Below are positions 11,839 to 61,499 of a stretch of DNA of 64,000 bases, piece after piece; position 1 is the stretch's first letter; every line of letters begins with the position of its first letter. The position numbers and the translations under genes were made by a program. The stretch covers positions 645,014-709,013 of the forward strand of contig NBIV01000004.1 in assembly GCA_003194525.1 (NCBI GenBank), in the 5' to 3' direction. Origin of the DNA: Gracilariopsis chorda (Eukaryota; Rhodophyta; Florideophyceae; Gracilariales; Gracilariaceae). Below the pieces are notes generated by a model. That model saw nothing but the letters and a program-made list of their open reading frames with translations. It did no database searches and was not told where the DNA came from.

Positions 11839-12635
11839 TCTAGTGCATTACCCGGACGCTGGAGTGCACCGAAAGACGTTCGGGACCTTTCTTCGTTAGA
11901 GATGAGCCTAGTTGGGTAGAGCCCTCCCAAGAGTGGCACGACTATGTCGAATTGTAAGGCCAAGGCCACCCGTCGCGACTTGCGCAGGGAGGTTGAGGCA
12001 AGAATCAGGTATCCGCAGGAGCGGTGTATGGGGGTGGTCGTCCTCTAGAGAGGTGAGGTTTCCAGGTTAATGGCACGCGCGAACACGAGCCGTGGGTAGC
12101 AGGAAAGCCATCCTGTAAATTGAAAAAGGAAAGGGGAGCTGATTCACGAGTGTCGTGACGAAGACTAACGGCAGTGCCGGTAACTAAACCTTATACAGAG
12201 CGAACAGCAAGACAGCTGGAATAACAATCCGAATACTTGGTTCCTTTAGATAGGCAAGGGGTTTAGACTTCCCGTATGCGACGGTGCTTCCCTCCAAAGA
12301 GGAGTAGAGAACACGCAAAGGCGGTGAGGTCTAGAGCCGATTCCCCAGGTTGGGGTCCCTTGTTGGGGAACTTTTACTGGTGCGACTGCAACCCGCCGGC
12401 GCAATAAGTACTAACCATCCCAGAAATGGGTGTAAAAATAATAATTAGAATTAACTAAATTACTCCACTTTGGTGGTTCATGTCCACTACTGTGGCCAAC
12501 CGCCATTTGACTCTTTCGTGTCCCACGTGTCAAATCTACTACTAGTGGTCGTAGTTCCTGCAATGACTACATTACCGAAACATTCGGGAAATCAACCAAG
12601 TACCAAGGATCCCTCTCTGAGGGCATTGCACTTCA
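11839..12635 (-). mobile_element. Solo LTR (copy C of the E0/E4 LTR family) inserted in E1
   Basis: About 800 bp aligned with 29279-30106 and with the complement of 56301-57108: shared landmarks are CACCGAAAGACGTTCGGG, GGGTAGAGCCCTCCC, GTCGCGACTTGCGCAGGGAGG and the end TTGCACTTCA. No gag-pol accompanies it, so it is a solo LTR left by recombination. It is the most diverged copy in the window and several hairpins have decayed, but others keep their stems with new loops. The target duplication is not clean (GTATT against TTTTT). Confidence 0.85.
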
Positions 12636-18590: not shown

Positions 18591-18594
18591 ATTT

Positions 18595-29278: not shown

Positions 29279-30106
29279 TGTGGTGCAATGCCCCAAAGGG
29301 GAAAAACACCGAAAGACGTTCGGGATCTTCCTCTCACGAGGTGAACGCAGTTGGGTAGAGCCCTCCCAGAGGTGTCACGGCGAAGCCGGTTTGTAAGATC
29401 AGGGACACCTGTCGCGACTTGCGCAGGGAGGTGAAGGCGAAGAATCGGTATCCGCGTGAGCGGGGTGTGATCCTCAGTAGAGGCATGTTTCCACGTAAGT
29501 GGGGATGTGTGAGCGGATGCGCACACGAGGGCCGCCGATAGCGGGAGGAGCTACCCTAAAAAGGGCGAAAAAGGAAGGGCGAAGAGGACGAAGAGAGGAC
29601 GAAGTGAGTCGCGAGAGCGACGAACGGATACGGCAATGCCGGTGGACAGGACTCCCTATACAGGGTGAAACACCAATATGATTGGAACAATTATACTCCC
29701 AAGGATGGGCTTCTTTAGATGTGCAAGGGGGTTAGATGTCCCGTGGTTTACGGCGTTTCCCTCCAAGGAGGAGTACAGCACGCACGCAAGCGGCAACAAC
29801 TAGAGCCGATTCCCCAGGTTGGGGTCCCTTGTTTGGGAAGGTTTACTGGTGCGACGGCAGTGCGCCGTCGCACTAAGTACTAGCTTCCCAGAAATGGGTG
29901 TGAAAATAATAAATAATATTAACTAAAATGCTCCACATTTCGTGGCAACATCCACTACTGTGGCCAAGCGTCAATTGACCCAAAACCGTGTCCCACGTAT
30001 CCATACCCACCATTGTGGGGCGTAGTTCATATAAACACTACACAACCGATAATATCGGGAAAACGATCAAGTACCAAGAATCCCTCCTTGAGGGCGTTGC
30101 ACTTCA
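29279..30106 (-). repeat. E0 3' LTR, copy A (828 bp), hairpin-rich
   Basis: Starts TGTGGTGCAATGCCCC and ends GGGCGTTGCACTTCA on the plus strand, so the ends form a long imperfect inverted repeat. Closely matches the complement of 56301-57108. Perfect small hairpins follow each other: 29291-29301, 29309-29323, 29330-29341, 29378-29388, 29452-29463, 29472-29483, 29491-29502, 29741-29753 and many more. Confidence 0.9.
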
Positions 30107-30167
30107 TATCCGACCGTAAGACGGGAAAACGACCGCGGAAGCTGAGGATTCCCAGACGAAAATGTGT

Positions 30168-30174
30168 TATAAAA
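30168..30174 (+). promoter_or_regulatory. TATA box of the E0 opposite-strand gene
   Basis: TATAAAA lies 62 bp past the LTR edge and 102 bp before the ATG at 30270, nearly the same layout as in E2. Confidence 0.6.
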
Positions 30175-30269
30175 GTGCGTGCTCGGTCTCCGGTTCTCCG
30201 GTAAATCCCTCTGCACCAGAGTCATCGGGCGCACAAACAACAACAACAGCCACCCACCAAAAGGGAAAA

Positions 30270-30692
30270 ATGAACAACGACAACAACATCAACAACCACA
30301 GCCAACCTCCGAGGCCTCTCGGGCGATACACCACCGGTTTCCGTTCAGTTCCCCTGCCTCAGGGCGATCGACATCCGGTACAACCGGGGAGTATGGCTGC
30401 TGCAGCCGACCATCCCTTCGCACTACAACCTTCGGTGGGGTCCTCTGGAACCGCTCCGGCGTTCAACTGGCCAACCTACAACACCCTGGTGGGGCTTAAC
30501 CCGATGAATCGGAATCACGTGTCGTGCCTGCGCCTTGCCCCGTGGTTTCACCCGGTCGCTGTCCTCAATGAGGGATTAGTCACCGCTTATGCGGATGGCT
30601 CAGACACCCTTCCCGCGGATGTCACCGCCATGGCGGACGCGTTGGCTTACCGCCTTGCCGGTGGTCAAGCCCCGGGCGACGGCGAAGAGTGA
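30270..30692 (+). CDS. E0 opposite-strand accessory ORF, 140 residues (short form)
   Basis: Starts at ATG 30270-30272 after an A/C-rich leader. It aligns with the N-terminal part of the E2 opposite-strand protein: GFRSVPLPQGDRHPV against GFLSLPLPGGSSHVP, and LAPWFHPVAVLNEGLV against SRAPWFHPTWVSDSDLI, ending shortly after a DALAYRL segment. E2 continues for about 400 more residues, so this copy is either a short natural form or truncated. It is transcribed away from the LTR, against gag-pol. Function unknown. Confidence 0.65.
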   Translation: MNNDNNINNHSQPPRPLGRYTTGFRSVPLPQGDRHPVQPGSMAAAADHPFALQPSVGSSGTAPAFNWPTYNTLVGLNPMNRNHVSCLRLAPWFHPVAVLNEGLVTAYADGSDTLPADVTAMADALAYRLAGGQAPGDGEE

Positions 30693-30785
30693 GCCCCTTT
30701 TGTCCAGTTTCCTGGTGTTCCTTCCCTGGCTATGCCAGTTAGTGTAGTGTAGTATGGAGCTTGCTGCTCCGCTAGGTAAACTTTC

Positions 30786-30831
30786 CCGTCTCGGACGGTG
30801 ATTTCCAATTAGAATTCCCCGTCTTGGACGG
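30786..30831. terminator. Paired hairpins between convergent ORFs (E0)
   Basis: Two identical 5-bp stems, CCGTC-N3-GACGG, at 30786-30798 and 30819-30831, lie between the stop of the plus-strand ORF (30692) and the end of the chromodomain ORF (about 30895). E2 has a pair at the same relative place with different bases. A role in 3'-end formation is an inference. Confidence 0.35.
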
Positions 30832-30894
30832 ACTTTCCCTTGCTATCCTTTCTTACTGCCCTCCGCTCGCGCGGCAACGTTACCCGACTTTGGC

Positions 30895-30968
30895 ATTAAC
30901 CAGCGTGGCTGGAGCTGCAGTTCCCGTTTGACGGTGGTATCGCACGACCTGCGATCGTGGGAGGTGTT
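30895..30968 (-). pseudogene. E0 chromodomain ORF, C-terminal piece
   Basis: Reads HLPRSQVVRYHRQTG and on to a stop near 30895; it completes the chromodomain begun at 42419-42556, from which E2 separates it. The E2 protein has HLPRSKVITYHRR at this place. Confidence 0.8.
30964..30968. repeat. Target-site duplication of E2 (GTGTT), left
   Basis: GTGTT also stands at 42419-42423, directly after the other LTR. Confidence 0.9.
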
Positions 30969-31882
30969 TGTGGTGCAATCCCGGTGTGGGAAGGGCACCC
31001 AAGGCAGCTCGAAGCCTTGCTCTCTTGGAGAGGTAGGCCCAGCTGGGTAGAGCCCTCCGTGTCCCGTATGACGGGTGTAACTCCGTCGGGAGCCTGGATG
31101 TACCTCGGAGGTTTAGGGGTTAGAACGGGTCGGAACCACGGCTGGTCCGGAAGTAGCCTGCGAACAGTGGAACAAAAGAGGGAAAGGGACCACCTGACGG
31201 GGGCGTGCGGAAAGCGGGAACAGACCCCGGAGGGGGGGTGCCGATACACACACACGAACACGCACCGCGCGGCGGTTAGGGGATATGAGGGGAAGGGATG
31301 GTCTCACGGTCTCACGACACACGTCGGTAATATCAATACCCAAAACTGGGGCGGAGATAGGGCCTGTACGGGCGGTCACACGACAACAACGAATACCACG
31401 AGTGGTCACAACCCACTGGGTACGACGAGCACGGTCTCCTCGGTGGTGCGAGTCGGGTGAAACTATCGGGCAAGCGGTGTACCTCCGCGAGGAGTTAGAC
31501 ACTTCGCATGGCGAATAGAGTCAGAGCCGAACTCTTGTTACTTTTCTTGGTGAGCTCGCCGCCGTGCGGCCGACGCTCAAGTACTAGCTCAGTGCAGTAC
31601 AGTAGGTAGTGCACTAGCCTAAGTAAAATTAACCCCTAAACTATACTAAAATAAGTAGCCGTTTTGGGCCTCCTGGCCGGGGCTGTAGCCACGTGTCCAC
31701 CACCCTTGCCAGGCAAGTACCACAAAATATGAATGTTCCCATAACCACCCTGGGTAACCCGACCGCTAATTAGCCCGGTAAACGGGGGCTAAAATTCATG
31801 CATCCCGCTTCATCGCTCGCACCGAGTACACCTCAGATATGAGTTTCACCATCGCCCGTACGCGGGAATGTATTGCACTACA
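30969..31882 (-). repeat. E2 3' LTR (914 bp), hairpin-rich
   Basis: Begins TGTGGTGCAAT and ends ATTGCACTACA, an 11-bp terminal inverted repeat with one mismatch. Differs from the other LTR by G/A in GGGAAGGGCACC, T/C in CCACCTGACG, and one G in a G-run. Confidence 0.95.
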
Positions 31883-31898
31883 CATCCCCCTCCTTAAG
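31883..31898 (-). promoter_or_regulatory. E2 3' polypurine tract
   Basis: On the minus strand CTTAAGGAGGGGGATG abuts the 3' LTR and would prime plus-strand DNA synthesis. Very similar tracts lie inside the element at 35162-35176 and 38329-38345. Confidence 0.85.
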
Positions 31899-31946
31899 GG
31901 CCGAAAACGAACGTGAGTATAAACGTGAGGAGATGAGGCGCGAGGG

Positions 31947-31954
31947 TATAAATA
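31947..31954 (+). promoter_or_regulatory. TATA box of the E2 antisense gene
   Basis: TATAAATA stands 65 bp past the LTR edge and 105 bp before ATG 32059. The E0 copy has TATAAAA with 102 bp to its ATG although the intervening sequences differ. Confidence 0.65.
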
Positions 31955-32058
31955 GTCCCGACAAGGGAATCGCCGAGATACCGGTCCCCCGTACCAACAC
32001 GGTTACAACTGATCAACCCTCAGAACCTTCTTCAACAGACTCTGCGCCCCTCTCTACT

Positions 32059-33774
32059 ATGACCAACACTCCGTTTTCGAACAACCCGCCTGCGGGCGCC
32101 CCGCAGGGGACTTCCGCGAGCGGACAACCTTCCTTCGCGACGCCGGGGTCGTGGGTTCGTCACCCATCCTCTGGGTTCCTCTCCTTGCCTCTGCCTGGAG
32201 GATCGTCTCATGTTCCAACCTTGGATGCCTCGGATGCCGCGAGTATCGCCGCCTGGAATTCCGCTCAAGCGATACCGATCACTGCGACCGCCGCCGGCTG
32301 GGTGTCACCATCGACACTTTGGGCCCGCAATCCCCGGGAAGACGCTCTCCTCTTTTCGCGTGCGCCCTGGTTCCACCCCACATGGGTTTCCGACTCGGAC
32401 CTCATCGACTCCTATGTGGAGGAGGGCGAGCTCCCAGGGGGACTAGGCCGGGATATGGTCGACTCCTTCGACTGGAGGACGCGTATCGCGGTAGAGCCAC
32501 AGTTCCTCGCACGGAAGCGCACCAGATATGGTTTCGAGACGCTGAATGAAGCCCGTGCCGGGATGGCCAAGGTCGCCTACGACCGTCTCGCCCGCGCGAG
32601 TTATCCGGATGAGCTGGTACCAACGGAATACAGCTTTGACCTCTCGCGGTACCGTACCTACGGTGAAGTCTCATACTGCGAGAACCTTGCTGCCTACCAG
32701 CCATCTACACCGTTCCGGTCCACTCCAATAGAAGCCGGGATGCTCCTCTGGAGGCGCCCAATTCTGCGTGCAGAGTTCCGATATCTTCGTCGTCCGAATC
32801 ATCGCGGATCCTTCTTCGACCGACTCCGGTTTGAGCGAAAGGCGCGCTCCCGCTTCGGGTTCCTGGTACCATACCAAAATCTCGAGGTCGAGAGGCTCCG
32901 TCCATCCGCGATGCGCGGCCGGTATGCACCTCTTCCCCATTGGTGGAGCAGGTTCGAAGTCCCGAGGGGATGCTTTGCGGAGATGCCTCCGTGCCTCAGC
33001 TACATCGGTTCACGATTAATCAACAATCCGGATTCCGGTTACTGGACTCTCTTCCTCGCCGAATGGGCTGCTCGCGTTGCCGCATTTCTCCTCTGGGAGG
33101 TGTACGACAAGAACCGTCTGTGGTACATTCCTCCTCACCTACGCCAGGTTATCCGCCGATTGGATCTCTATATCCCTCTGGGATCCGAAGCCAATGTGGA
33201 TGAGCTTCAGTGCCTTCTGAACACCATCGATATGGTTAACTGGGATACAGTCCCAGTCTCCAACGTCCCTGACGGTGAGCCTTCCAGGCATGATCGCTCT
33301 CCAGGCCGGAGAAATCCAAACGCTGGCAACTTCGTCTTCTATGACCCTTGGGAGGTATCCGTGACTTCACGGGCTCACGCGCTAGCGTTACGCGATGTAC
33401 CACGCTCCGTTCCGCGAGGCCACCCGGTTGGGTTCATGTTTTCCGATGACTGGCACGGTTCCTACGAGGATGATCCAATGGTGGATGACGACCCCGATGA
33501 GGTGGAGGAGGCCGTAGCCCCGGTAACGGCGATGGTCGACGATCTCGACGGATCCGGCCAGCATGTGGCTGCTCCAGATGGCTGGAATATGGCCGCCAGT
33601 GTGGCTGCGTCTCCGTCTACCGCATCTCCGGTCCCCGTGGACCCTCAGGCCGTTGCCCTCAGGGCTCACCTCCAGTCCATTGGAGTGGTTGCGCCTTCCA
33701 ACCTCACCAGCGTGAGCGAGTTATTGGCTTTCGCGTCTGCGAACTACCAACCGCCAACGAGCGGCTCATCCTAA
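32059..33774 (+). CDS. E2 opposite-strand accessory protein, 571 residues, no known domain
   Basis: The open frame runs from 31873, but the first ATG is 32059, 105 bp after a TATA box, and I take that start. Residues 1-60 are Pro/Ser/Gly-rich; then a conserved part shared with the E0 ORF (GFLSLPLPGGSSHVP; SRAPWFHPTWVSDSDLIDSY); a long basic, aromatic middle (WRRPILRAEFRYLRRP; FERKARSRFGFLVPY; LFLAEWAARVAAFLLWEVYD); and an acidic C-terminus (DDDPDEVEEAV). No signal peptide or clear membrane span is seen, so it does not look like an envelope protein. It faces gag-pol and ends 337 bp from the chromodomain ORF. Antisense extra ORFs are known in some plant gypsy elements; homology to those is not shown here. 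Confidence 0.8.
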   Translation: MTNTPFSNNPPAGAPQGTSASGQPSFATPGSWVRHPSSGFLSLPLPGGSSHVPTLDASDAASIAAWNSAQAIPITATAAGWVSPSTLWARNPREDALLFSRAPWFHPTWVSDSDLIDSYVEEGELPGGLGRDMVDSFDWRTRIAVEPQFLARKRTRYGFETLNEARAGMAKVAYDRLARASYPDELVPTEYSFDLSRYRTYGEVSYCENLAAYQPSTPFRSTPIEAGMLLWRRPILRAEFRYLRRPNHRGSFFDRLRFERKARSRFGFLVPYQNLEVERLRPSAMRGRYAPLPHWWSRFEVPRGCFAEMPPCLSYIGSRLINNPDSGYWTLFLAEWAARVAAFLLWEVYDKNRLWYIPPHLRQVIRRLDLYIPLGSEANVDELQCLLNTIDMVNWDTVPVSNVPDGEPSRHDRSPGRRNPNAGNFVFYDPWEVSVTSRAHALALRDVPRSVPRGHPVGFMFSDDWHGSYEDDPMVDDDPDEVEEAVAPVTAMVDDLDGSGQHVAAPDGWNMAASVAASPSTASPVPVDPQAVALRAHLQSIGVVAPSNLTSVSELLAFASANYQPPTSGSS

Positions 33775-33913
33775 GTCAGGATCCTGGACCGTGGCACACA
33801 CACCTGATATAGGTTAGCGCTTAACGCTCCATAGCTTGTGGTAAACGACTTCCTTCTTCTATATCCGTATGTCCGGACTCTTCTTTTTCTTCTTCATAGC
33901 ATCTTCATGCTGG

Positions 33914-33968
33914 ACCGCTAGGCGGTATTCTTCATTAAACCGTTACTTCGGTCGGACCGCTAGGCGGT
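33914..33968. terminator. Hairpin cluster between convergent genes of E2
   Basis: ACCGC-tag-GCGGT occurs twice (33914-33926 and 33956-33968) with ACCG-N6-CGGT between (33939-33952). It lies between the convergent antisense gene and chromodomain ORF, as does the different hairpin pair in E0. Function inferred only. Confidence 0.35.
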
Positions 33969-34110
33969 GTGACGTCCAATGACCATTGGTTTCCCTATCC
34001 AGTCCATTACTTCGTGTAACCTTCTGTAGCCAGATCTCTTCCTGTGTCCTCTTCTCTTCGGAGACTTCTCTTCCGTCTTCGGAATCTTCTGCATAGTGCA
34101 GTGTATCGTC

Positions 34111-34455
34111 CTACCCAACCTGGGCCATGTCCAAAGTGGATGGGAGTGGGAACCGCGTCCGGCGGTGGTAGGTTATCACCTTGGAACGAGGAAGGTGCTG
34201 AATGGGCTCCCATGTGTCCTCTTCCGGGGGGTATCCGTACCATCGGATTTGGTAAAACCACACTCCTTTGGAGTCCAGAACATGATCCACGATGTGGTCA
34301 ACGACAAACTCCTGGTCGTACGTAGCCGGCTCCTGACCCGTCATGGCAGGGCTTAAGGGGAGAACCCTGTGAGGGGACTTGCCTGAAATTGGCGCGACCC
34401 TGCGGGCAAAGTCAGCTTTCCTCGACGCTGCGAGTGCTGGGACTTGATACCGCAT
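34111..34455 (-). CDS. E2 chromodomain ORF, 114 residues
   Basis: Starts at ATG 34453-34455. Residues about 48-100 form a chromodomain: EFVVDHIVDHVLDSKGVWFY, QIRWYGYPPEEDTWEPI and HLPRSKVITYHRR. It has the aromatic residues typical of histone-tail readers and in chromoviruses such a domain steers integration. Here it is not in frame with the integrase ORF, which stops at 34896, so it is a separate ORF, or was split from pol by a mutation in the 440 bp between. E0 has the homologous chromodomain. Confidence 0.8.
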   Translation of the reverse strand: MRYQVPALAASRKADFARRVAPISGKSPHRVLPLSPAMTGQEPATYDQEFVVDHIVDHVLDSKGVWFYQIRWYGYPPEEDTWEPIQHLPRSKVITYHRRTRFPLPSTLDMAQVG

Positions 34456-34895
34456 TGCGGTCTTTCCGCTTCCTAATCCTCTCCTTGTGGGGGGGGGCCT
34501 TCCGTTCTAACCGGATTCCCCTATTGACGCGCAGCTCGCGAGCTCTTCTCCCACGCGACCCGTGCAACTCTGGTGAGTTTGACCTTTCACGGTGAGGGAG
34601 GCGGTTCACTACGGTTCCGACGCCAGGAGGCGGATTGCCATGCATCACACACTGTGATTGGCTGGCCGCTGGCGGCAAGTGTCGCGCGCGGTCTTTCCAC
34701 GACGCGGGTCTTGACTGTACTCCTGACGCCGGCCGGCGGTATGTACGTGTACACCTTTCCACGGTTTGGAATTTCGGGCTTCGTCCGCGTGACAGTGGCG
34801 TCACAGTGTCCATTTGTAGGGCTCTGCGGTAACGCACGCAGTGTCAACCACACTCTCCGTGTCCGCGGTTGCTTTTCAGCTCACCACGAAACTGG

Positions 34896-36045
34896 TTATG
34901 AACGAGGTTGTATGTGCTCCGTGCTCGGAGATATCATTCGCCACATTAGTGACCACACCGAGTCCGGTTCACCACTTCCTCCTTCGCTACCCAGCGACTC
35001 GCTCGACAGGAGTGCATCCGGGTCCGCGGAGACGGCCTTCTCGCTTCGAGATGCGTTCAACTCCTCCCTGCTCTGGGGGTGCTCATCCGACGATGCCGTA
35101 TGAAACGGGACACCGTCCGACGCCGGAGCTTCCTTCCGCGATGGCGCGATCGATTCCCGTTCCTCCCCCTCCTTAGGTGAGAGGGCGGTGGGTTCAGGAT
35201 GAAGGACCTCCGCGGGCGGAGTAACGGTTAGGCGTTTGGGGTCAAGCGTGCGTTGCACGATACGCGCGGCGCGCCCAACCGGTTGATCGGCAATTGGAAG
35301 ATCCGAGAGTCCCCGTTTCGGGTGCGGTAAGACGGGTGGGCGGGACGGAAGCAGATTATCCGTTGGCCGAGTTACGAGGTCATCCTCCGGGATTGTCACG
35401 AGCGGTGATGAGCCCTCAGGGGGCGCAGGCGCGTGGGCTACGCGGTCGCGTGAGACGCGTTCGAACTGGTTATCGATGTCCAGTACGACTGTGTCGTCGG
35501 CGACGGAAACCACCCGATAGGGTCCATTCACTATCGGTGACAACTTGTGGCGCTTCTCCTTTTCGGGATTATAATATTCCTTTCGCAGGAAGACAGAATC
35601 CCCTTCCGAGACCTGGGGTATCGGGGAACGAATCTTCGCGTCGAAGTTCTGTTTGTATGCCTCCTGGGCTTTTCCCATAGCCTTTCGGGCGGTAGGGACC
35701 ATGTTCTTCAACCATTCCTTCCAGGAATCTCGATATAACCTTGGTGAAGGGTACCCCGAGACGTTCGGTTGCGCTTCAATAGCCATGGGTGGTGGAATCC
35801 GAGACAGGACCAGCTCAAATGGAGCGAGGGTCGTGACCCGGTGTACCTGGGTGTTATACGCGTACGTAATAGCGTCCGTGTACAAGTCCCATTCCATGGG
35901 GTGATCCGCGACATACGCGCGCAGTGCGTTGAGCATAGTACGATTGAATCGTTCCACTTGTCCGTTACACTGCGGGTGGTAGGTGGTAGTAAACATATTC
36001 TTGATTCCCAAGATTCTACATACGTCCTGAAAGAACTTTGAGGTG
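34896..36045 (-). CDS. pol: E2 integrase, C-terminal part plus long Pro/Ser linker
   Basis: Continues pol after a one-base shift. It holds TTTYHPQCNGQVERFNRTML with the catalytic Glu, TYAYNTQVHRVT, the C-terminal GPYRVVSVADDTVVLDI block, and a disordered tail of about 200 residues with a KEGEE encoded by an internal polypurine tract (35162-35176). It stops at 34896. Removing one A from the AAA at 36046-36048 would keep the frame with the preceding 1098 residues, so the break is a single-base change. Confidence 0.85.
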
Positions 36046-39000
36046 AAATTGAGATCCGTTGTCGGAGAGTAGGTGTACCGGCGGGCCGTAAGTAAAGACC
36101 CAGTGGGTTACGAACGCACGCGCAACCACGTCCGCGGTAATCCGTTTAAGCGGTACTGTTCTCACCAACTTTGAGAAGCGGTCAGTAATGACGAGAAGAT
36201 ACTTGTAACCACGTTTGGTTTTGACAAGCTCGCCCAAGATATCAATAGCGACATATTCGAGTGGCGCCCGTGCCGGGAATAGTGTTAACTTCTTCGAGTA
36301 CTTCCGAAGTTTCACATTATTCTTCGCACATTCCACGCACGAGCGGCGAACTGCAAAGCAGTCAAATGCCATAGCAGGCCAATAGAAGTCCCTGCGAAGG
36401 GTCAGGTATAGTTTCCTCCCGCCGGGATGTGCACCCAACTTCGCGTAATGCGATAGATGCAAGACGCGCTGCTGCAGCGTGTGAGGTACAACGATCTGTG
36501 GGGCCCGTGTCAGCAACCTGACTAGGTAGCCTCGATCGTTCACCGCAAAGGGTATCTGTGCGCCCCCGTTAAGACGGGCACGAATCTGGGCACAGAAAGG
36601 ATCCTGCTGTTGTTCACGGATCATTTCCTCAGGGGATATGGGAACAACCTGGTCATCCGGAGGATCCGTAGGGTTTGCAGCCAGAATATCGTCACAGATG
36701 TCATCCCCATTCACGTCTGGGTCGTCTTCTTCCGTTCCCTCCGGGGATTGTGCCATGAAACATGGTATTTCCAGATCGTCGACCGGTTCGGTTTCCGCTG
36801 ATGTTCCTAAGCGCGATAGGGCGTCAGCCTGAGTATTCAGGGATCCCTTCTTGTAGAGGACATCAAATGTAAATTCCGAGAGTCGGAGACGCCAACGCAT
36901 GAGGCGGCCCGACGGTTCTCGAATTTCGAGTAGCCAACGGAGAGCCGAGTGATCGGTGTGAACCTTGAAATGGTTACCCATAAGGTATGGGCGAAGCGTT
37001 GCCAACGCCCAAACAACAGCAAGACACTCCTTCTCGGACACCGAGTAGTTGCGCTCGTGAACGTTCAACGAACGTGACCAATATCCGATCGGATGTCTTT
37101 CTCCTTCTTCCGTGACTTGAAACAACGCACAACCCACCTGGTGGGCACTTGAGTCAGTATCCACTTCGAAGGGTAAGTCCGGGTGCGGTAAGGCCAGAAC
37201 TGGCGGGGACGTTACAGCGTCGACAAGAGACGAGAATGCTGACGACTCAGCCTCGTCAAAGACGTCCAGTTCGGTGGGTTGTCCTTTCCGGAGGAGTGCG
37301 TTAAGCGGTGCTGACAAGTCGGCGAAGTTCGGGACGAATCGGCGATATACATTGCAAAGTCCTAGGAAGGATCGAAGCTCCGTTTGATTAGTCGGATGTT
37401 TCGCCTCTCGAAGTGATTTCACTCTTGCTTCATCGATTGAAAGCTGTCCGGGGCGGATGATGTGCCCCAGATATTTTACCGAATCGGCGCAGAACTCACA
37501 CTTTCCCAGCTTCAGGGTGATGCCTGCGTTGCGGAGCACTGTCAAGACTTCCCGGACATGGGACAGGTGATCGTCCAAGTTATTGGAGAACACTATAATG
37601 TCGTCCAAGTATACCAGACAGCTGGTCCATTTGAACCTCGCCAAGAGGATATCGATTGCCCGTTGGAATGTAGCTGGGGCATTCGTTAGTCCAAACGGCA
37701 TTCGCTTAAAGCGATATAGTCCTTGATGGCACACAAACGCGGTCTTATCACGATCTTCTTTCCTAATAGGGACCTGCCAGTATCCCGAATTGGCATCGAG
37801 GGTAGTGAACACCGTTGCGCTCCCCAGGGAGTCAATGTACTCGTCCATTCGTGGAATCGGATAGACGTCCTTGACAGTAACCGCATTCAGGCGGCGGTAA
37901 TCCACACAGAAACGCCATGATCCATCGGCTTTCGGAACAAGGACAACAGGAGAAGCCCAAGGGGATTGTGCTGCTTCGATAACTCCAGCTCGCAGCATCT
38001 TCTCCACCTGAGATTTCTCTTCCCCCCTTGCTTTAGGGCCTGCCCGATACGGGTGCTGTGCAATAGGCCGTGTATCCGGCAACAAATCAATCCGATGTTC
38101 GGTTACCCCTATCGTCCCCAGGGAACCGTCCCACATGGCGGTAAAGTCCCTGAGCATGTCACGAAACTTCTCACGATGAGATTCATTAATGTGATCCAGG
38201 TCCAACTTATCCAAAGCCTGTTCTGGGTCTAACGCAGTATCTGCCGATGCTGAAGTCGTGCTCTTCTGAGCTTCTTCGACAGTCGAATCTGAACTTTCCC
38301 GGGCGGAATCCAACGGAACGAACGGGACCTCCTCCCCCTCCTTAGGGTCTTGTATTCCGAGAACGTCGGATATCGGAATCTTTGTAGGAAGGATAGCCAA
38401 CGGATGCGGAAGCATGTTGCCCAGGACCTGGTTTTTAACCAACCACTGAGTGGTAGTTCCGAGGTTAGCAACGAGAACCTTAAAGGGTTTGTCCGGCTCG
38501 ACGGATACGATCCCATTTGCTAATGCGAGACGGCGCTGTTCGTAGAGCGAGGGGAGCGGTTGAACAACCTGCAACCCGTGGTGTTTGGATGTTACTGAGA
38601 CCCACACCTGAGATTCCTTCGGGATCGAAACTGGTTCCGCGACGCGAATCTTCGTAGATGCTCGATCCACATTGGACGCTTCCTGAGCAGCAGGTAAAGG
38701 TACCCGTTTACGGGAGGCGTGTCGCAAGGGCTTCCGTACAATCGGGATGGTCGAACCGTTGGCCAATTCCACGGATCTGGAGCGAGGGCGGATAGCTTCC
38801 ACGAAGCGGTCACAGAAATCACAACCGAGGATGACCGGTGCAGCAAGAGAATCGCATACGATGAAGTCCAACTTCACCACGTAGGTGCCTAGTCTGAGTA
38901 CCAGAGGAATTGTTCCAAGAGTCTGGAGCGGGTTGTTATTAGCGTCCGCCAGATCCAGACTTGGACCAATGCGAATGCATTTCCGCATGGCGGGTGGAAT

Positions 39001-39312
39001 AATCCCGATATTGATCAGGTTCGGAGCGGCACCTGTATCCAGGACAGATAACTGACGAACCATGAACTGGTTAGAGAGACCGAGGTCACTATAAACTTTA
39101 TAGTTCCTCTTGGCCATTACCAAAACTCGATCCGGGATGCGGAGGTTACGGGACCGTATCCACGGACGACGCAGAGCCACTAAGTGGTCCGAGCTCACGT
39201 CTTCTTGAGCCAGTTTCCTCGTAAGGATTTTGGCAGGGGAGCGAAGCGGTGGCGCCTCAGGCGTCTCCAACTTCGGCTTGGAAGACACCCCTCCCGTGGG
39301 GGAGACTCCCAA
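36016..39312 (-). CDS. pol: E2 Pol: protease, reverse transcriptase, RNase H, integrase N-half
   Basis: One open frame of about 1100 residues. Protease has VLDTGAAPN (about residue 90). Reverse transcriptase has SPWASPVVLVPKADGSWRFC, MPFGLTNAPATF and CLVYLDDIIVFS. RNase H has DTDSSAHQVGCAL and HTDHSALRWLL. Integrase has the zinc-binding LHLSHYAKLGAH and CVECAKNN, then AIDILGELVKTKRGYKYLL and LLSDNGSQF with two catalytic Asp. The frame then runs out after a one-base shift. The frame starts -1 relative to the nucleocapsid frame, with a conserved hairpin at the junction, so it is probably made by frameshifting from Gag. Confidence 0.95.
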   Translation of the reverse strand: MGVSPTGGVSSKPKLETPEAPPLRSPAKILTRKLAQEDVSSDHLVALRRPWIRSRNLRIPDRVLVMAKRNYKVYSDLGLSNQFMVRQLSVLDTGAAPNLINIGIIPPAMRKCIRIGPSLDLADANNNPLQTLGTIPLVLRLGTYVVKLDFIVCDSLAAPVILGCDFCDRFVEAIRPRSRSVELANGSTIPIVRKPLRHASRKRVPLPAAQEASNVDRASTKIRVAEPVSIPKESQVWVSVTSKHHGLQVVQPLPSLYEQRRLALANGIVSVEPDKPFKVLVANLGTTTQWLVKNQVLGNMLPHPLAILPTKIPISDVLGIQDPKEGEEVPFVPLDSARESSDSTVEEAQKSTTSASADTALDPEQALDKLDLDHINESHREKFRDMLRDFTAMWDGSLGTIGVTEHRIDLLPDTRPIAQHPYRAGPKARGEEKSQVEKMLRAGVIEAAQSPWASPVVLVPKADGSWRFCVDYRRLNAVTVKDVYPIPRMDEYIDSLGSATVFTTLDANSGYWQVPIRKEDRDKTAFVCHQGLYRFKRMPFGLTNAPATFQRAIDILLARFKWTSCLVYLDDIIVFSNNLDDHLSHVREVLTVLRNAGITLKLGKCEFCADSVKYLGHIIRPGQLSIDEARVKSLREAKHPTNQTELRSFLGLCNVYRRFVPNFADLSAPLNALLRKGQPTELDVFDEAESSAFSSLVDAVTSPPVLALPHPDLPFEVDTDSSAHQVGCALFQVTEEGERHPIGYWSRSLNVHERNYSVSEKECLAVVWALATLRPYLMGNHFKVHTDHSALRWLLEIREPSGRLMRWRLRLSEFTFDVLYKKGSLNTQADALSRLGTSAETEPVDDLEIPCFMAQSPEGTEEDDPDVNGDDICDDILAANPTDPPDDQVVPISPEEMIREQQQDPFCAQIRARLNGGAQIPFAVNDRGYLVRLLTRAPQIVVPHTLQQRVLHLSHYAKLGAHPGGRKLYLTLRRDFYWPAMAFDCFAVRRSCVECAKNNVKLRKYSKKLTLFPARAPLEYVAIDILGELVKTKRGYKYLLVITDRFSKLVRTVPLKRITADVVARAFVTHWVFTYGPPVHLLSDNGSQFHLKVLSGRM
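38329..38345 (-). promoter_or_regulatory. Internal polypurine tract between protease and RT (E2)
   Basis: On the minus strand CTAAGGAGGGGGAGGAGG, matching the 3' tract core TAAGGAGGGGG, within coding sequence for PKEGEEV. E4 has the same motif at 60391-60404 in the same pol position. It may be a central polypurine tract. Confidence 0.5.
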
Positions 39313-39317
39313 GATTA
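39291..39317 (-). promoter_or_regulatory. gag-pol junction of E2: stop, -1 frame and hairpin
   Basis: The nucleocapsid frame ends CCG AAA AAC TAA and pol is read -1. The hairpin CTCCC-N4-GGGAG (39291-39304, complement) and GGGAG-N-CTCCC (39300-39310) follow within about 10 nt. E4 has GAA AAC TAA, the same -1 relation and the same stem with another loop. A programmed -1 shift is likely, although the heptamer is not canonical. Confidence 0.55.
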
Positions 39318-39764
39318 GTTTTTCGGGACCGAATCGACCGCTGGGTGCGGCTGAGCCCGTTCCGAAAGGTTAGGGTTGTTACCGTTCGCGGTTTTCGCGG
39401 CTTCTCGAGCTTGAGCATTGTGGACCGCAGCCTTTGCGTCTTCATACGAATTACTCGGGACACGAGCCTTATGCTCCGGTGGGAGATTCTCATAATTTCC
39501 CACGATCTTCCACATCTCGCGAATGGGGAGGGTACACTGCGACGCAGTATGACCTTCAAGGTAACAAATGTAGCAAATCAGCGGGGCTGAACGTGTTCCG
39601 GTGGCGTGGGACATCATTCCGCGGTGCTGAGGGTGTTGTGGTTGGAATGCTAGTTGCTTCGGGTTGGACCATCCCGGGCGGGAGTGTCTTGTGGCGCTCG
39701 ACGCGTAGGCTAGCGGGGCTGGGGGAACCCGACCGGGGTTTGCGTAAAAGGCCGGATCTACCAC
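39315..39764 (-). CDS. gag: E2 nucleocapsid part of Gag (CCHC zinc knuckle)
   Basis: About 149 residues containing CYICYLEGHTASQC, a CCHC knuckle for RNA packaging, followed by a basic Lys/Ala-rich tail. It overlaps the end of the 532-residue gag frame by a few bases (39758-39764) in the -1 frame. E4 reads in one frame across the same place, so either E2 lost one C from a C-run at about 39765-39769 or it shifts frame there. Confidence 0.85.
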   Translation of the reverse strand: MVDPAFYANPGRVPPAPLAYASSATRHSRPGWSNPKQLAFQPQHPQHRGMMSHATGTRSAPLICYICYLEGHTASQCTLPIREMWKIVGNYENLPPEHKARVPSNSYEDAKAAVHNAQAREAAKTANGNNPNLSERAQPHPAVDSVPKN

Positions 39765-41356
39765 GGGGGTGTAACCGTGGACGGCAGTTCCGAGGTTGCC
39801 AACGACTGTTCAAGACTGCCAAGATACTGGATGTTATCCGCAAATCCGGAAGGTGGTCCCGGGTTAGGGAGAGATGCCGAGGAAGCCTCGTTCTCGACGA
39901 AGAGAGCCTTCGACGACCGACGCCTCGGGTCTCTCGCTCTGAGGGTGTCACCCTCAGCCTGCGCGTACTGGACCAGTTCCAGATACGTCGCCTTGCGCTT
40001 CTCTTCCCTGTAGCGGGACACCAGTGCCCTGATACCAGGATCTAAACCATCCACCAGCATGGAGCAACGCTCAAAAGCGGTAAACACATTTCCACAACGA
40101 TGAAACGCTTTATTCAAGCGAGTTGAATACGACGTTTCCGTTTCACCAGGCTTCTGTTTCGTATCGCGAACCGCCACGATGGCTTGACTGATTGCAGTTC
40201 CCGTCGCGTACGACCTGAGCAGGTAGTGTACAGCCTCGGGCCAGCACGTAACACCTCCTTCTGAGGCCCTGGACGAACCCCTGACCGAGTTGTACTGATC
40301 TTCAGCCATTCCTGAAAGAAAGTAGGGCAACGCAACGTATGCCTGCGCCTCACTCATTTCGAGTACGTCTGCTTCCTGCACAAAGCGGGCCAGAAAATCC
40401 AACACGAGGATCGGATCTTCACCGGAGAACTTCTGCTTAAGCATCGTCACATTCATACGACGTATGAGATCCTTCACCCGACCGGTGTCTCTCGAACTTC
40501 GAGTGCCCGAAGAGTCTTCCAATCGGTAATAACGATAGGACAACAGCTTCCTGTAAAGGGGATTCGTCGGTTTCAATTCCTTCAAGCCGAAATGACGGCG
40601 ACCTTTCTCCCGCGCACGGATTGCTCCATGGGAGGTGTAGGTAGCCCTCGAACTAGGTTCTTCTCCGCGACGGCGGCCTCTCCCTTCACGCGATGATCTC
40701 GAAGACGAGCTACTCGAACTTGTTTCCGAGTCGGAACTTGGCGAAACTTCATAACGATGAACTCTCTTTCCAGGGTGACGGGGGAGGTGACTGGAGCGGT
40801 GTTGGGTTGAGATGACCTTCACTTCCTCCTGTCTCGGAGCGTTCAGGTCTTCTCTGAGCAACGCTTCCAGCGTGTCCATACGTCCGGTTACCCGCATCAT
40901 ATGGGTTTTAACTTCCTCCACGAACTCCCGATATCCTTCTACGAAGGCAGCCGGAGTACCCAGACACTCCAGAATGGAATTCACATCAGCTCTCAGGAGA
41001 CGAATATCTCCCGAATAATCCCGAGCCAGGGAGTCACTCCATCGCCGTTCCAACTCGGTAACTTGCTGCGAGAGGGAGGCGTGGGCCACATTGGCAATGT
41101 CGATTCTCGACTCGAGGAGATGGTACTTAGGCGACCCGGGTCTCGGGGGGACAGCCGACGGCGTTTCGACCACCGGAGGTGGCGTAGTGGCCACAGCTGT
41201 CACGGCTCGAGGCACCGAGGTTGCCGATGGGATTCCTTGGGATTCCAGACCGACGGCATTGGTAAGTAGTTGTTCCGGAACGGACCTTCGTGATCTCGCC
41301 GCTGCGGCGTTCCGTTGCGGACCATTCCTGGGGGAACTCGGAGCTGTGGGTAGCAT
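39758..41356 (-). CDS. gag: E2 Gag, capsid part, 532 residues
   Basis: First ATG at 41354-41356, 150 bp after the 5' LTR. Residues 1-100 are Pro/Ala-rich; about 100-190 form a coiled coil; about 195-260 are Ser/Arg-rich; then the retrotransposon Gag domain: GEDPILVLDFLARFVQEAD, ALPYFLSGMAEDQY, LLRSYATGTAISQAIV, RLNKAFHRCGNVF and MLVDGLDPGIRALVSRYRE. It would build the virus-like particle. E4 Gag is clearly homologous. It ends TPPW and a stop where the nucleocapsid frame starts. Confidence 0.9.
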   Translation of the reverse strand: MLPTAPSSPRNGPQRNAAAARSRRSVPEQLLTNAVGLESQGIPSATSVPRAVTAVATTPPPVVETPSAVPPRPGSPKYHLLESRIDIANVAHASLSQQVTELERRWSDSLARDYSGDIRLLRADVNSILECLGTPAAFVEGYREFVEEVKTHMMRVTGRMDTLEALLREDLNAPRQEEVKVISTQHRSSHLPRHPGKRVHRYEVSPSSDSETSSSSSSSRSSREGRGRRRGEEPSSRATYTSHGAIRAREKGRRHFGLKELKPTNPLYRKLLSYRYYRLEDSSGTRSSRDTGRVKDLIRRMNVTMLKQKFSGEDPILVLDFLARFVQEADVLEMSEAQAYVALPYFLSGMAEDQYNSVRGSSRASEGGVTCWPEAVHYLLRSYATGTAISQAIVAVRDTKQKPGETETSYSTRLNKAFHRCGNVFTAFERCSMLVDGLDPGIRALVSRYREEKRKATYLELVQYAQAEGDTLRARDPRRRSSKALFVENEASSASLPNPGPPSGFADNIQYLGSLEQSLATSELPSTVTPPW

Positions 41357-41484
41357 ACTGCAGATAGCCGTCCACGGCTTACTTCACCAGTCCCACGGCT
41401 TGGGAATCTCAACGAATGAGCAAAAAGGGATAAAAGGGAAAAGGGGAAGCGGACTTCCGACAGGCCGGATTGAAAGCCAAACCC

Positions 41485-41503
41485 GTTCTAGGTCGGGAGA
41501 CCA
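41485..41503 (-). promoter_or_regulatory. E2 primer-binding site
   Basis: Two bases after the 5' LTR the minus strand reads TGGTCTCCCGACCTAGAAC. E4 has TGGTCTCCTGACTTAGAAT at the same place, so the two elements use the same primer. The complement ends in ACCA as a tRNA would, but I do not recognise which tRNA. Confidence 0.7.
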
Positions 41504-41505
41504 CT

Positions 41506-42418
41506 TGTGGTGCAATCCCGGTGTGGGAAAGGCACCCAAGGCAGCTCGAAGCCTTGCTCTCTTGGAGAGGTAGGCCCAGCTGGGTAGAGCCCTCCGTGTC
41601 CCGTATGACGGGTGTAACTCCGTCGGGAGCCTGGATGTACCTCGGAGGTTTAGGGGTTAGAACGGGTCGGAACCACGGCTGGTCCGGAAGTAGCCTGCGA
41701 ACAGTGGAACAAAAGAGGGAAAGGGACCACCCGACGGGGGCGTGCGGAAAGCGGGAACAGACCCCGGAGGGGGGTGCCGATACACACACACGAACACGCA
41801 CCGCGCGGCGGTTAGGGGATATGAGGGGAAGGGATGGTCTCACGGTCTCACGACACACGTCGGTAATATCAATACCCAAAACTGGGGCGGAGATAGGGCC
41901 TGTACGGGCGGTCACACGACAACAACGAATACCACGAGTGGTCACAACCCACTGGGTACGACGAGCACGGTCTCCTCGGTGGTGCGAGTCGGGTGAAACT
42001 ATCGGGCAAGCGGTGTACCTCCGCGAGGAGTTAGACACTTCGCATGGCGAATAGAGTCAGAGCCGAACTCTTGTTACTTTTCTTGGTGAGCTCGCCGCCG
42101 TGCGGCCGACGCTCAAGTACTAGCTCAGTGCAGTACAGTAGGTAGTGCACTAGCCTAAGTAAAATTAACCCCTAAACTATACTAAAATAAGTAGCCGTTT
42201 TGGGCCTCCTGGCCGGGGCTGTAGCCACGTGTCCACCACCCTTGCCAGGCAAGTACCACAAAATATGAATGTTCCCATAACCACCCTGGGTAACCCGACC
42301 GCTAATTAGCCCGGTAAACGGGGGCTAAAATTCATGCATCCCGCTTCATCGCTCGCACCGAGTACACCTCAGATATGAGTTTCACCATCGCCCGTACGCG
42401 GGAATGTATTGCACTACA
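41506..42418 (-). repeat. E2 5' LTR (913 bp), hairpin-rich
   Basis: Nearly identical to 30969-31882. Clear hairpins include CCCG-TATG-ACGGG, CTCCgtcgGGAG, CCCCggaGGGG, CCCAaaacTGGG, TTCGCatgGCGAA, CTTGCCaGGCAAG and TTAGCCC...GGGGCTAA. Confidence 0.95.
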
Positions 42419-42556
42419 GTGTTCAATTGACTCCCACGTATCTCCACTGGGTTCATATCCGTACCAGCGGACGCGGTATTGTAGAATACCATCCTGGTCT
42501 CAGGTGTGTCCGACAAGTTGGTCTACTACGAACTCTCGTTCGTAGACCTGCCGGCC
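42419..42556 (-). pseudogene. E0 chromodomain ORF, N-terminal piece, cut by E2
   Basis: Reads YEREFVVDQLVGHT, stop, DQDGILQYRVRWYGYEPSGD and TWESIEH, then jumps the E2 insertion to HLPRSQVV at 30968. One in-frame TGA is present. It matches the E2 chromodomain closely. Confidence 0.85.
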
Positions 42557-43947
42557 GTGCCGGGTGGGTTGTACTCCCTTGCGAGGGTTGCCCGCTGTGC
42601 GGTATGTTGCCCCCCATCGGGGTTGTCGGCGATGTCTCCGGCGTTGTCGTGCGCTGTCCTAGTGGCCGCTGCTCATGCGGGAAAATATCCCTCAAGAGGG
42701 TGTGTGGCGTAACGTTTTTCACCGGCAAGTCATTCCCCAGAGGGGCGCCGTTGTTCCCGTGTTCACGGTAGGCTGGGCCAACCCCCAGTCGGCGGGGGAC
42801 TTGAACTCCGCGATTGCGGTCTTCTTCGCGAACCGCGAGCTTGCGGGGTTCTTGCCACGCATGCGGGAACGGCGTTTGCGACATCCCCTGCGGGGTCCCG
42901 TGCGACACGGTGATTGGTAAGCGTTCCACCTCCCTGCCAGGTGCACGAGCGCTCTGCAACATACGTTCCAGCGACGCCGTGGTGTTCCCGGTTACTGACG
43001 GGTTGCCTGGGGCTAACTCCGGTACACTGGTATTTTGGTCAAAATTCCTTTTTGGCGGGTGCCGGGGAGTGCCGATGACACTTTTTTCAGGGGGATTGCC
43101 GCTAAGCGCGGTGCACCATCTCCATGAGGAGGAGCAGCGTTTGGTACGACGGGTTTCGAGCGTGCGATGGCGCGCGTTTTTCCCGAGTTCCTCGGTTCTT
43201 CGCCGCAGCGTTGCGGGCGTTGGCGCAAATTATTCCCCGGAGCGGGGGCTTCGATTCTGTCAACGACGGGAGGCGTTTCCGGCACTTGCGCGCCAGGGCC
43301 TGAAGCTTCGACTGCGGCTTGGCTGCCTTTTTCCCAGAGAGGGGTGTGGGTATTTCCCTGTGAGGCTGGGGTATCTGGGCCACTCTTCTCCGCGGGGCGC
43401 GGGTCTGCTGGACCTAATTGAACTGCTTCCGCGGGGGCTTCCACCAATGGCGGCTTCGATGCATCGCTCCGTCCAGGGGATTGGGGGCAATCGTCACCAT
43501 ACTCCCTTATCGGGGATCCTTCCCTGAAAGGGGTGTGCGGTAGTTGCGCTTCAACTTCCCGTGTAGCACGGTATATTTCCCGCGTTTGTGGCGATGCCTT
43601 CGGGGATGGATCGGGCGATTGCATTTCCAGTGCTGCGGTATTGGATGGAGGCTTCTCGTTATCCCGTGACAAACAGTGTATTTGCCGCTTTTGCAGGGCC
43701 TGCGTGTCTGGTTCCTGTTGCAAAGCACTGCCCGAGAACGGCGGATTAGCGTCGCGTGACATACTCCGTGCTCCACGGTCAGTGTTCCGTATGTTACGGT
43801 GTGTTTCCCGTTGCGACGGCGATATCGTTCCTCGAAAACGAGTGTTCTCCTCCCCCTCCTTAGACGGACCAGCGGGATAAGAGTTACCTTCCCCGCCTGG
43901 CGGGTATAAATGCGCGCCAGTAGGGCAGGCGTGGTAGGGGAGCTCAG
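42557..43947 (-). pseudogene. pol: E0 post-integrase Pro/Ser-rich linker region, hairpin-dense
   Basis: A minus frame at 43013-43762 (249 residues, rich in Pro, Ala, Glu and Arg) starts MSRDANPPFSGSA; E4 has the homologous MSRDTKPPFPSSA at 63672 on the plus strand, and flanking DNA matches over about 600 bp in inverted orientation. An internal polypurine tract lies at 43849-43863. It equals the disordered tail after integrase in E2. Small hairpins such as CCCC-N3-GGGG and CCCT-N3-AGGG are frequent. Confidence 0.65.
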
Positions 43948-44121
43948 TGCAATAGAACTGTTTAATGAAAAGCGGTTGCCAATGTTTTAATCAGCTTCAA
44001 ACATAAGCGAACGTGTACGATAGTATAAGAGTTGAACCTCTCACCTGGTTCAAACCATCTAGAAGGAGGTAGCCTCCGTTGTGTAAAGTTATTGTTGTAT
44101 TAGTAAGAGCATACTCTTACA
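43948..44121 (+). repeat. E3 5' LTR (174 bp, 23-bp deletion)
   Basis: Starts TGCAATAGAACTG and ends ATACTCTTACA. It lacks 23 bp present in the 3' LTR after GAATGAAA. Contains GGAGGtagCCTCC and AAGAGcataCTCTT hairpins. Confidence 0.95.
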
Positions 44122-44123
44122 TT

Positions 44124-44139: not shown

Positions 44140-44159
44140 TACCTCACAGAGAACAAGAG

Positions 44160-45643: not shown

Positions 45644-45689
45644 CCAAGAAGGAAACAGACCACAACGTCGAAAAATGTTTGTTTCAAAC

Positions 45690-54083: not shown

Positions 54084-54086
54084 TGA

Positions 54087-57130: not shown

Positions 57131-57213
57131 CGGTTTTTGTTTTCCCTCTTACGAGGTTTGTTTTCATTCACCGGAAGTTCCGTGATCGTTTCCCGTCGTA
57201 ACGGTATTTTCTC

Positions 57214-59386: not shown

Positions 59387-59410
59387 CTGAGGGAGTCTCC
59401 CCTTTGGGAG
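59378..59410 (+). promoter_or_regulatory. gag-pol junction of E4: stop, -1 frame and hairpin
   Basis: GAA AAC TAA (59378-59386) is followed by GGGAG-T-CTCCC (59391-59401) and CTCCC-CTTT-GGGAG (59397-59410). E2 has the same stems and frame relation. Confidence 0.55.
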
Positions 59411-60400: not shown

Positions 60401-60445
60401 GAGGAAACCGCTACTTCAGCGTCGAACATACCGAGTAACTCGGAA

Positions 60446-61494: not shown

Positions 61495-61499
61495 CTCCT

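What the first reader, a model, noticed from the sequence alone, without database searches (positions are those of the whole stretch)
29279..30106. LTR built as a chain of small hairpins; stems kept while loops change
In LTR copy A perfect 4-6 bp stems with 3-5 nt loops occur about every 15-30 nt. Comparing copies A (29279-30106), B (56301-57108, complement) and C (11839-12635): the stem CCGT/ACGG has loops ggttt (29745-29749), acact (B, complement of 56659-56663) and atgcg (12276-12280); CCGC/GCGG has gtga in A and agga in C; CCTC/GAGG has agta in A and taga in C. The stem CGGC/GCCG in A (29378-29388) is CGAC/GTCG in C (11939-11949), a paired change, with loop gaa to tat. This suggests that structure, not sequence, is preserved, or that a mutational process such as templated correction of quasi-palindromes keeps restoring stems.
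Basis: partly seen in the sequence, partly recalled or inferred. Interest (0 to 1): 0.88.

Follow-up and report, generated by a model that had tools for sequence, protein, structure and literature searches.

The report
Retrotransposons written in family-specific mini-hairpins
In one lineage of retrotransposons, probably from a red alga, genes and ends alike are written as a chain of tiny perfect hairpins with a spelling that differs by family and seems to be protected while copies replicate, which looks like an undescribed self-recognition code.

Summary
LTR A holds 29 perfect hairpins (stem 4+, loop 3-6) against 9.0+/-2.4 shuffled; B and C behave alike. It is not an LTR feature: whole Gypsy elements, coding sequence included, carry 24-39 per kb against 11-14 shuffled, and the excess survives protein-preserving codon shuffles. 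It is confined to one RT clade: 11 of 11 sampled loci have 1.95-2.88x, 14 other Gypsy loci 0.86-1.46x.

Three rules emerged. (1) Stems with C on the outer 5' side dominate: CC..GG 299 vs 32.9, GG..CC 29 vs 31.4. (2) Pairing is strictly Watson-Crick, nearly all or none. (3) The stem spelling differs by family, runs from LTR to gag, and switches at the edge of a nested insertion.

In 30 F2 copies, variants shared by 5 or more avoid clamped stems (4/924 vs 64/2056 outside); singletons do not. Compensating double changes are absent at short range. This favours selection over templated correction.

Best mechanism, inferred: an element-encoded nucleic-acid binder, most likely Gag, reads the hairpins for packaging or self-recognition.

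The parts
29279..30106 (-). LTR A, 3' LTR of an older F2-like Gypsy copy on the minus strand; 29 hairpins, CC-first dialect
30107..30967 (-). Internal remnant of the same older copy, left of the nested F1 element; 22 hairpins vs 10.8, CC-first 15 vs 1.1
30969..42418 (-). F1 Gypsy element nested in the older copy; 5-bp target duplication gtgtt at 30964-30968 and 42419-42423; F1 dialect
30969..31882 (-). F1 3' LTR, 99.7% identical to the other F1 LTR
31843..33774 (+). Open frame of 643 aa opposite to F1 gag-pol, no Pfam match, hairpin-rich (61 vs 27.2 after codon shuffle of its ATG/GTG/TTG-started part)
34896..36107 (-). F1 pol, later piece, weak integrase-core match below the curated cut-off
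36016..39369 (-). F1 pol: RT, RNase H, integrase zinc-binding and core matches
39758..41383 (-). F1 gag-position open frame, no Pfam match
41506..42418 (-). F1 5' LTR; followed inward by a primer-site-like TGGTCTCCCGACC
42419..43970 (-). Remnant of the older F2-like copy on the other side of F1; 34 hairpins vs 19.1, CC-first 22 vs 2.1
56301..57108 (+). LTR B, 5' LTR of an F2 Gypsy element; 28 hairpins
57202..58992 (+). F2 gag-position open frame, no Pfam match; 63 hairpins vs 25.9 after codon shuffle of 57214-58992
59338..62340 (+). F2 pol in several open pieces (RT in 60622-61494, RNase H in 61495-62340)
62341..64000 (+). Rest of F2 up to the window end; 48 hairpins vs 19.2
11839..12635 (-). 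LTR C, related LTR (71-73% to A and B), 21 hairpins, CC-first dialect; at least 40 copies at 91% or more in the genome

Best explanation
One clade of Gypsy LTR retrotransposons carries about 25-35 strictly Watson-Crick mini-hairpins per kb along its whole length, in LTRs and through gag-pol: stems of 4-5 bp, loops of 3-5 nt, a C-rich clamp on the outer 5' side of the stem. The replicating lineage appears to select for them: widely shared variants avoid clamped stems and lean towards new hairpins, while copy-specific mutations ignore them. Single hairpins come and go over long times but density stays, so number matters more than place. Shown: pattern, clade limit, orientation bias, strict pairing, dialects, protection in widely shared F2 variants and between LTRs. 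Inferred: element-encoded reader, Gag, RNA as the folded molecule.
For: Density and clade limit. Size window: 5 bp + 3 nt 6.3x, 4 bp + 4 nt 3.3x, 3-bp stems about 1x, 7 bp and more no clear excess. Orientation, with no stability reason by computed energies. Strict pairing. Dialects uniform along an element and switching at the nested insertion. Protection: F2 variants in 5 or more copies, clamped stems 4/924, other stems 8/336, outside 64/2056, singletons alike everywhere; loss of hairpins 6 vs 16.8 expected and gain 6 vs 3.2; LTR A vs B clamped stems 2/204 vs 43/429 outside, and clamped hairpins of A kept in C 14/24 vs 0/5 of the others. A zinc-knuckle-like pattern lies between gag and pol frames in F1 and F2.
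Against: No binding or function shown. Variants in 2-4 copies show little protection (clamped stems 83/924 vs 224/2056) and no gain or loss bias (F2). F1 shows no protection: 3/576 clamped stem vs 4/2228 outside among 7 variants. In L039 vs L066 stems without the clamp are also below the outside rate (14/296 vs 182/2109). Strict rejection of G-U is unusual for RNA. Folding energy is only mildly low (mean z about -0.5 to -1.4 over F1, F2 and F3) and alike on both strands. Gag frames match no Pfam family, and the hairpin-free Copia element has a zinc knuckle too. A weaker excess (1.4-1.8x) of TT, GC, AA and AT outer pairs exists.
Confidence: 0.4

Rival explanations
1. Copying process: the element's reverse transcriptase snaps back at short complementary stretches and copies one arm from the other, so perfect hairpins are made and restored at each replication. 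Dialects would be enzyme preferences.
For: Strict Watson-Crick pairing, element-specific dialect, protection only in variants that went through replication. Arm homogenisation by template switching is known for yeast DNA (PMC8604942, abstract and outline).
Against: Copying one arm into the other should leave compensating pairs. By my arithmetic about 13 were expected among F2 variants in 5 or more copies (39 stem variants expected at the outside rate, 12 seen, half of the difference); 0 were seen, and 0 of 131 pairs A to B. Near-perfect stems are not depleted. Stems do not grow beyond 5-6 bp.
Confidence: 0.12
2. The hairpins act as single-stranded DNA, in the cDNA intermediate, recognised or needed during reverse transcription or integration.
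For: G-U is no better than A-C inside or at the clamp; one-side changes between families give G-T and A-C equally (.211 and .219); coding stretches fold alike on both strands.
Against: A small post hoc count leans to sense RNA: 5 of 7 transitions in widely shared F2 stem variants and 4 of 4 from LTR A to B make G-U in element sense, against 0 of 2 from B to A. No DNA-binding reader is known.
Confidence: 0.18
3. Shield: hairpins make the element RNA poorly accessible to host small RNAs or nucleases.
For: Density rather than place is kept; typical repeat of hairpin plus gap is about 25 nt.
Against: A shield needs no C clamp, no dialect and no ban on G-U; energies are only mildly low.
Confidence: 0.12
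4. Genome-wide selection for a stable folded sense RNA, as proposed for some RNA viruses.
For: Whole-length distribution including coding sequence.
Against: Mean folding z about -0.5 to -1.4, alike on both strands for the coding stretches (LTRs A and B fold better in sense, C the other way); no G-U tolerance; GG..CC stems, computed to be more stable in RNA, are not enriched.
Confidence: 0.06
5. Artefact of composition, codon use or protein sequence.
For: The elements are richer in G+C (0.52-0.58) than most of the window (0.43-0.49).
Against: Dinucleotide and codon shuffles remove the signal; the GC-matched Gypsy L081 (0.52) has 26 vs 27.9; noncoding LTRs show it too.
Confidence: 0.02

Closest known systems
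Gypsy (Ty3-type) LTR retrotransposons
   Same: LTRs TG..CA, 5-bp target duplication, primer-site-like TGG..., G-rich tract before the 3' LTR, RT-RNase H-integrase order.
   Different: 14 other Gypsy loci tested (11 from this genome, one of them in the window counted as gyp3 besides, and 2 from other records) lack the hairpins.
Dispersed packaging signals of RNA bacteriophage MS2 (PMC4751978, abstract and outline seen)
   Same: Many dispersed, degenerate sites along a genome, suited to contact by a coat-type protein.
   Different: Here in a retrotransposon, strictly Watson-Crick, with a clamp orientation and family dialects; no protein contact is shown.
Genome-scale ordered RNA structure of some RNA viruses (recalled; only search listings seen)
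   Same: Runs through coding sequence over the whole genome.
   Different: Mild folding energy, strand symmetry in coding stretches, no G-U, stems of 4-5 bp only.
Quasi-palindrome template switching (PMC8604942, abstract and outline seen)
   Same: Would make perfect short inverted repeats.
   Different: No compensating pairs at short range, one orientation favoured, family dialects.

Membership tests
Gypsy LTR retrotransposon | RT, RNase H and integrase in this order | tested here: met
   F1 pol: RVT_1, RT_RNaseH, Integrase_H2C2, rve over their cut-offs
Gypsy LTR retrotransposon | Two LTRs and a target-site duplication | tested here: met
   F1: LTRs 99.7% alike, gtgtt on both sides; 3 of 8 A-type LTR copies (L003, L004, L005) are solo with 5-bp duplications
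Gypsy LTR retrotransposon | Primer site matching a host tRNA 3' end | tested here: inconclusive
   TGG-starting stretch next to the 5' LTR seen in F1 and F2; no tRNA was compared
Dispersed packaging signals | Many similar stem-loops along the genome under selection | tested here: met
   (selection mainly in F2 and the LTRs)
Dispersed packaging signals | Binding by the coat or Gag protein | not testable with these tools
   no binding data
Genome-scale ordered RNA structure | Strongly lowered folding energy of the sense RNA | tested here: not met
   F1, F2, F3 mean z -0.64, -1.40, -0.50 sense; -0.73, -1.15, -0.63 antisense
Genome-scale ordered RNA structure | G-U pairs accepted in stems | tested here: not met
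   small opposite hint in recent variants
Quasi-palindrome correction | Compensating changes of both arms between close copies | tested here: not met
   0 in F2 at 5 or more copies, 2 at 2-4, 5 in single copies; 0 of 131 pairs A to B
Quasi-palindrome correction | Independence of stem orientation | tested here: not met
   CC..GG 9.1x, GG..CC 0.93x

The most novel reading that the evidence does not exclude
The whole genome of these retrotransposons is a bar code: hundreds of strictly paired mini-hairpins whose clamp spelling is private to a family and is read by that family's own Gag or RT, so that an element recognises, coats and reverse-transcribes its own nucleic acid in a nucleus full of close relatives, with code and reader evolving together.
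Probability: 0.3. Interest if true: 0.95.

Novelty: categorically new. Interest (0 to 1): 0.9.

Why it matters
A second, non-protein message seems to be laid over entire genes and LTRs of a mobile element, with its own grammar (orientation, size, strict pairing) and family dialects, and it is protected in widely transmitted copies of F2. The ten literature searches listed no description of such a pattern; the library holds open-licence papers only and I saw listings, not full texts.

Tried and rejected
My first guess at the host (oomycete, from the look of the frames) was dropped: the only organism names among the 120 listed relatives of the RT are the red algae Agarophyton chilense and Chondrus crispus. 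One search compared loci in mixed orientation and is void; one search repeats it correctly. Rfam at gathering scores and the tRNA scan gave nothing in the window. No relative was found in viral contigs; genome contigs gave two distant ones, 41-45% identical, without the pattern. A dsDNA dyad-site reading was dropped because inner positions pair with any base. Stability as the reason for the C clamp was dropped. Hairpin starts do not follow the reading frame. A weak spacing preference (gaps 5-14 nt about 1.1-1.45x, 0-2 nt 0.45-0.71x) was not followed. In one search the tree label _HP was set by the CC count, so L086 (F5) reads _no although its hairpins are 56 vs 28.7. The F1 dialect pattern counted was defined after seeing F1, and its LTR was part of that set; F2 and the remnants are the independent contrast. 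The tandem LTR pair of L075 and the element arrays were left aside. One search fetched shorter stretches of 6 of the 14 places asked for.

Full report
WHAT WAS CLAIMED AND WHAT IS THERE. The quoted stems and loops are present. Counting non-overlapping perfect stems of 4 bp or more with loops of 3-6 nt, A has 29, B 28 and C 21, against 9.0+/-2.4, 9.2+/-2.8 and 9.4+/-2.4 in 200 dinucleotide shuffles each; no shuffle passed 17.

IT IS NOT AN LTR FEATURE. In 1-kb bins hairpins number 24-39 against 11-14 shuffled across 29-43 kb and 56-64 kb, and 24 vs 11.8 in the bin of C; the other bins have 7-20 against 11-14. Two of those, 18001-19000 and 23001-24000, are moderately high (z 3.1 and 3.5) and unexplained. 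The rich stretches are Gypsy elements. F1 (30969-42418, minus strand) has LTRs 99.7% alike and a gtgtt target duplication, and sits inside an older F2-like element whose 3' LTR is A. A second F2 element starts with LTR B and runs off the window. The neighbouring Gypsy (43970-48874) and Copia (51186-55722) elements stay near the shuffled level (11-20 per kb, z -0.5 to 2.4). In 8 of 8 open frames of F1 and F2 the excess remains when synonymous codons are exchanged within the frame (z 4.1 to 10.9; for example F1 pol 94 vs 44.1+/-4.6, F2 gag 63 vs 25.9+/-3.9); seven control frames give z from -1.4 to 2.6. Hairpin starts fall evenly on the three codon positions (104, 102, 106).

CLADE LIMIT. All 60 RT loci first fetched (L009-L068) have 25-35 hairpins per kb against 10-14, but they fall in three families. 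Wider sampling gave five families, 63-72% identical in nucleotides. The 11 clade loci tested show 1.95-2.88 times the shuffled count; 14 other Gypsy loci, RT 31-46% identical, two of them from symbiont-labelled contigs, show 0.86-1.46 times, the highest z being 2.9. In an RT tree the 11 loci and the unnamed protein P0001 group with support 100/99.

GRAMMAR. Over 23.4 kb, maximal stems of 5 bp with 3-nt loops are 6.3 times expectation, 4 bp with 4 nt 3.3 times, 6 bp with 3 nt 3.1 times, 3-bp stems about 1, and 7 bp or more show no clear excess on small counts (six shuffles). Orientation matters. Over 29.3 kb, stems starting CC number 299 against 32.9, CT, AC, TC and CG 2.4-3.9 times, TT, GC, AA and AT 1.4-1.8 times, GG 29 against 31.4, GA 16 against 28.9. 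In the LTRs the five C-clamped classes hold 24, 25 and 16 hairpins against 3.3 each, the rest 5, 3 and 5 against about 6. Where CC and GG span 11, 12 or 13 nt, stem positions 3 and 4 are complementary in 0.40-0.58 of cases against 0.25-0.27 after permuting partners; where GG and CC do, 0.23 and 0.26 against 0.25. Computed stability gives no reason: RNA -4.92 (CC..GG) and -5.65 (GG..CC), DNA -3.51 and -3.49 kcal/mol. Pairing is nearly all or none: with a perfect clamp the next two pairs are complementary 0.521 vs 0.264 permuted; with one U-G or C-A in the clamp 0.21-0.29, no more than permuted; with A-G or C-T at position 1 a trace (0.30-0.31 vs 0.26, z 2.5). If pair 3 is G-U, pair 4 is complementary in 0.28 of 39 cases; if pair 3 is Watson-Crick, in 0.76 of 346.

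DIALECTS. In F2, F3 and the LTRs A and C the clamp is CC at stem positions 1-2 (14.6, 16.0, 21.7 and 16.9 times). In F1 position 1 is usually not G and the pyrimidine clamp sits at positions 2-3 (AC 6.0, CT 5.1, TC 4.1, TT 4.1, CC 3.8 times). F4 favours CC and TC (8.6 and 5.7), F5 CG (6.2, on 14 hairpins). CC-first stems are 57 of 341 in F1 and 143 of 259 in F2 (p 3e-23). Stems of A or T followed by CC, CT or TC, a pattern defined after seeing F1, are 10.0, 11.3, 6.8 and 5.5 times expected in the F1 LTR, 3' internal part, pol and gag; in F2 they are 2.6 (2 vs 0.8) in the LTR and 1.0-1.2 elsewhere. The two remnants of the old element on either side of F1 show the F2 dialect (CC-first 14.1 and 10.5 times, the F1 pattern 1.7 and 1.2). 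A regional or host-wide mutational cause would not switch at those edges.

SELECTION OR COPYING. In 30 F2 copies, variants present in 5 or more copies hit stems at 12/1257 and other positions at 81/2583 (p 1.5e-5); at 2-4 copies 111/1257 and 283/2583 (p 0.04); singletons hit both alike, 201/1257 and 378/2583 (p 0.27). In the first class the protection belongs to C-clamped stems (4/924), not to the others (8/336), against 64/2056 outside; at 2-4 copies the clamped stems have 83/924 against 224/2056. Against a trinucleotide-matched null, variants in 5 or more copies destroy 6 hairpins (16.8 expected) and create 6 (3.2 expected); those in 2-4 copies destroy 77 (85.0) and create 11 (11.2); singletons destroy 135 (137.3) and create 9 (16.8). 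F1 has few shared variants: 36 at 2-4 copies (create 6 vs 1.8, destroy 4 vs 6.2) and 7 at 5 or more, of which 3 lie in clamped stems, so no protection is seen there. F3, with 7 copies, has 5 shared variants in all. The noncoding LTRs show it independently: A vs B clamped stems 2/204 against 43/429 outside; of A's hairpins 14 of 24 clamped and 0 of 5 others are intact in C. Paired double changes, expected if one arm is copied into the other, are 0 in the first F2 class, 2 at 2-4 copies, 5 in single copies, and 0 of 131 pairs A to B. Across families, both-changed stem pairs are complementary in 0.468 of cases against 0.358 for isolated complementary pairs, a modest covariation; 233 of 1516 hairpins are kept in place, 74 of them with changes. 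The short-term rule is protection, the long-term rule turnover at similar density. The two F2 subfamilies compared also show a diverged stretch beyond L039:2930, where hairpins are largely replaced.

RNA OR DNA. Strict pairing, coding stretches folding alike on both strands and loops without known stable types in excess fit DNA, or a protein that rejects wobble. LTRs A and B fold better in element sense, C the other way. A small post hoc count points to sense RNA: of transitions that break a stem, 5 of 7 in F2 variants of 5 or more copies and 4 of 4 from A to B make G-U in element sense, but 0 of 2 from B to A do (9 of 13 in all, where A and B were aligned on the other strand). I leave this open.

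WORKING HYPOTHESIS. Gag is my choice: a zinc-knuckle-like pattern lies between the gag and pol frames of F1 and F2, though the hairpin-free Copia has one as well; many dispersed sites suit a coating protein; and MS2 gives a precedent for dispersed degenerate sites contacted by coat protein (PMC4751978, abstract and outline). This step is inference. The gag-position frames match no Pfam family.

HOST. Three of the 120 listed RT relatives carry organism names, two Agarophyton chilense and one Chondrus crispus, 65-68% identical. I take the host to be a florideophyte red alga; this was not tested further.

LIMITS. One genome; shuffles are few in several calls (3 to 60, 200); family comparisons and both directions of a pair are not independent; the shared-variant test rests on F2; copies were taken from capped lists of best matches; function is untested.

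Noticed in passing
L075 (G000:C1068:10607-12378); similar neighbours listed on C729 and C757: An A-type LTR (90% to A) and a C-type LTR stand head to tail with no gap between them.
   Followed up: no
G000 contigs C883, C819, C573, C1001 and others: RNase H matches recur about every 5.68 kb on the same strand, and on C509 and C755 about every 6.35 kb: head-to-tail arrays of other Gypsy elements, or an assembly effect.
   Followed up: no
window 18001-19000 and 23001-24000: Hairpin counts of 19 and 20 per kb against about 12 (z 3.1 and 3.5) outside any recognised hairpin-rich element.
   Followed up: no
window 20422-20660: Stretch 69% similar to F1 35886-36127 (reverse), apparently a fragment of a related pol.
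   Followed up: no
window 31843-33774 (+): Open frame of 643 aa opposite in direction to F1 gag-pol, between pol and the 3' LTR; no Pfam match.
   Followed up: partly
L039 from about 2930 onward, against L066: Two F2 subfamilies are nearly alike before this point and much more diverged after it, as after recombination between subfamilies.
   Followed up: partly
L094, L095: Gypsy-like RT on contigs filed as bacterial symbionts of marine animals; perhaps animal DNA in these assemblies.
   Followed up: partly
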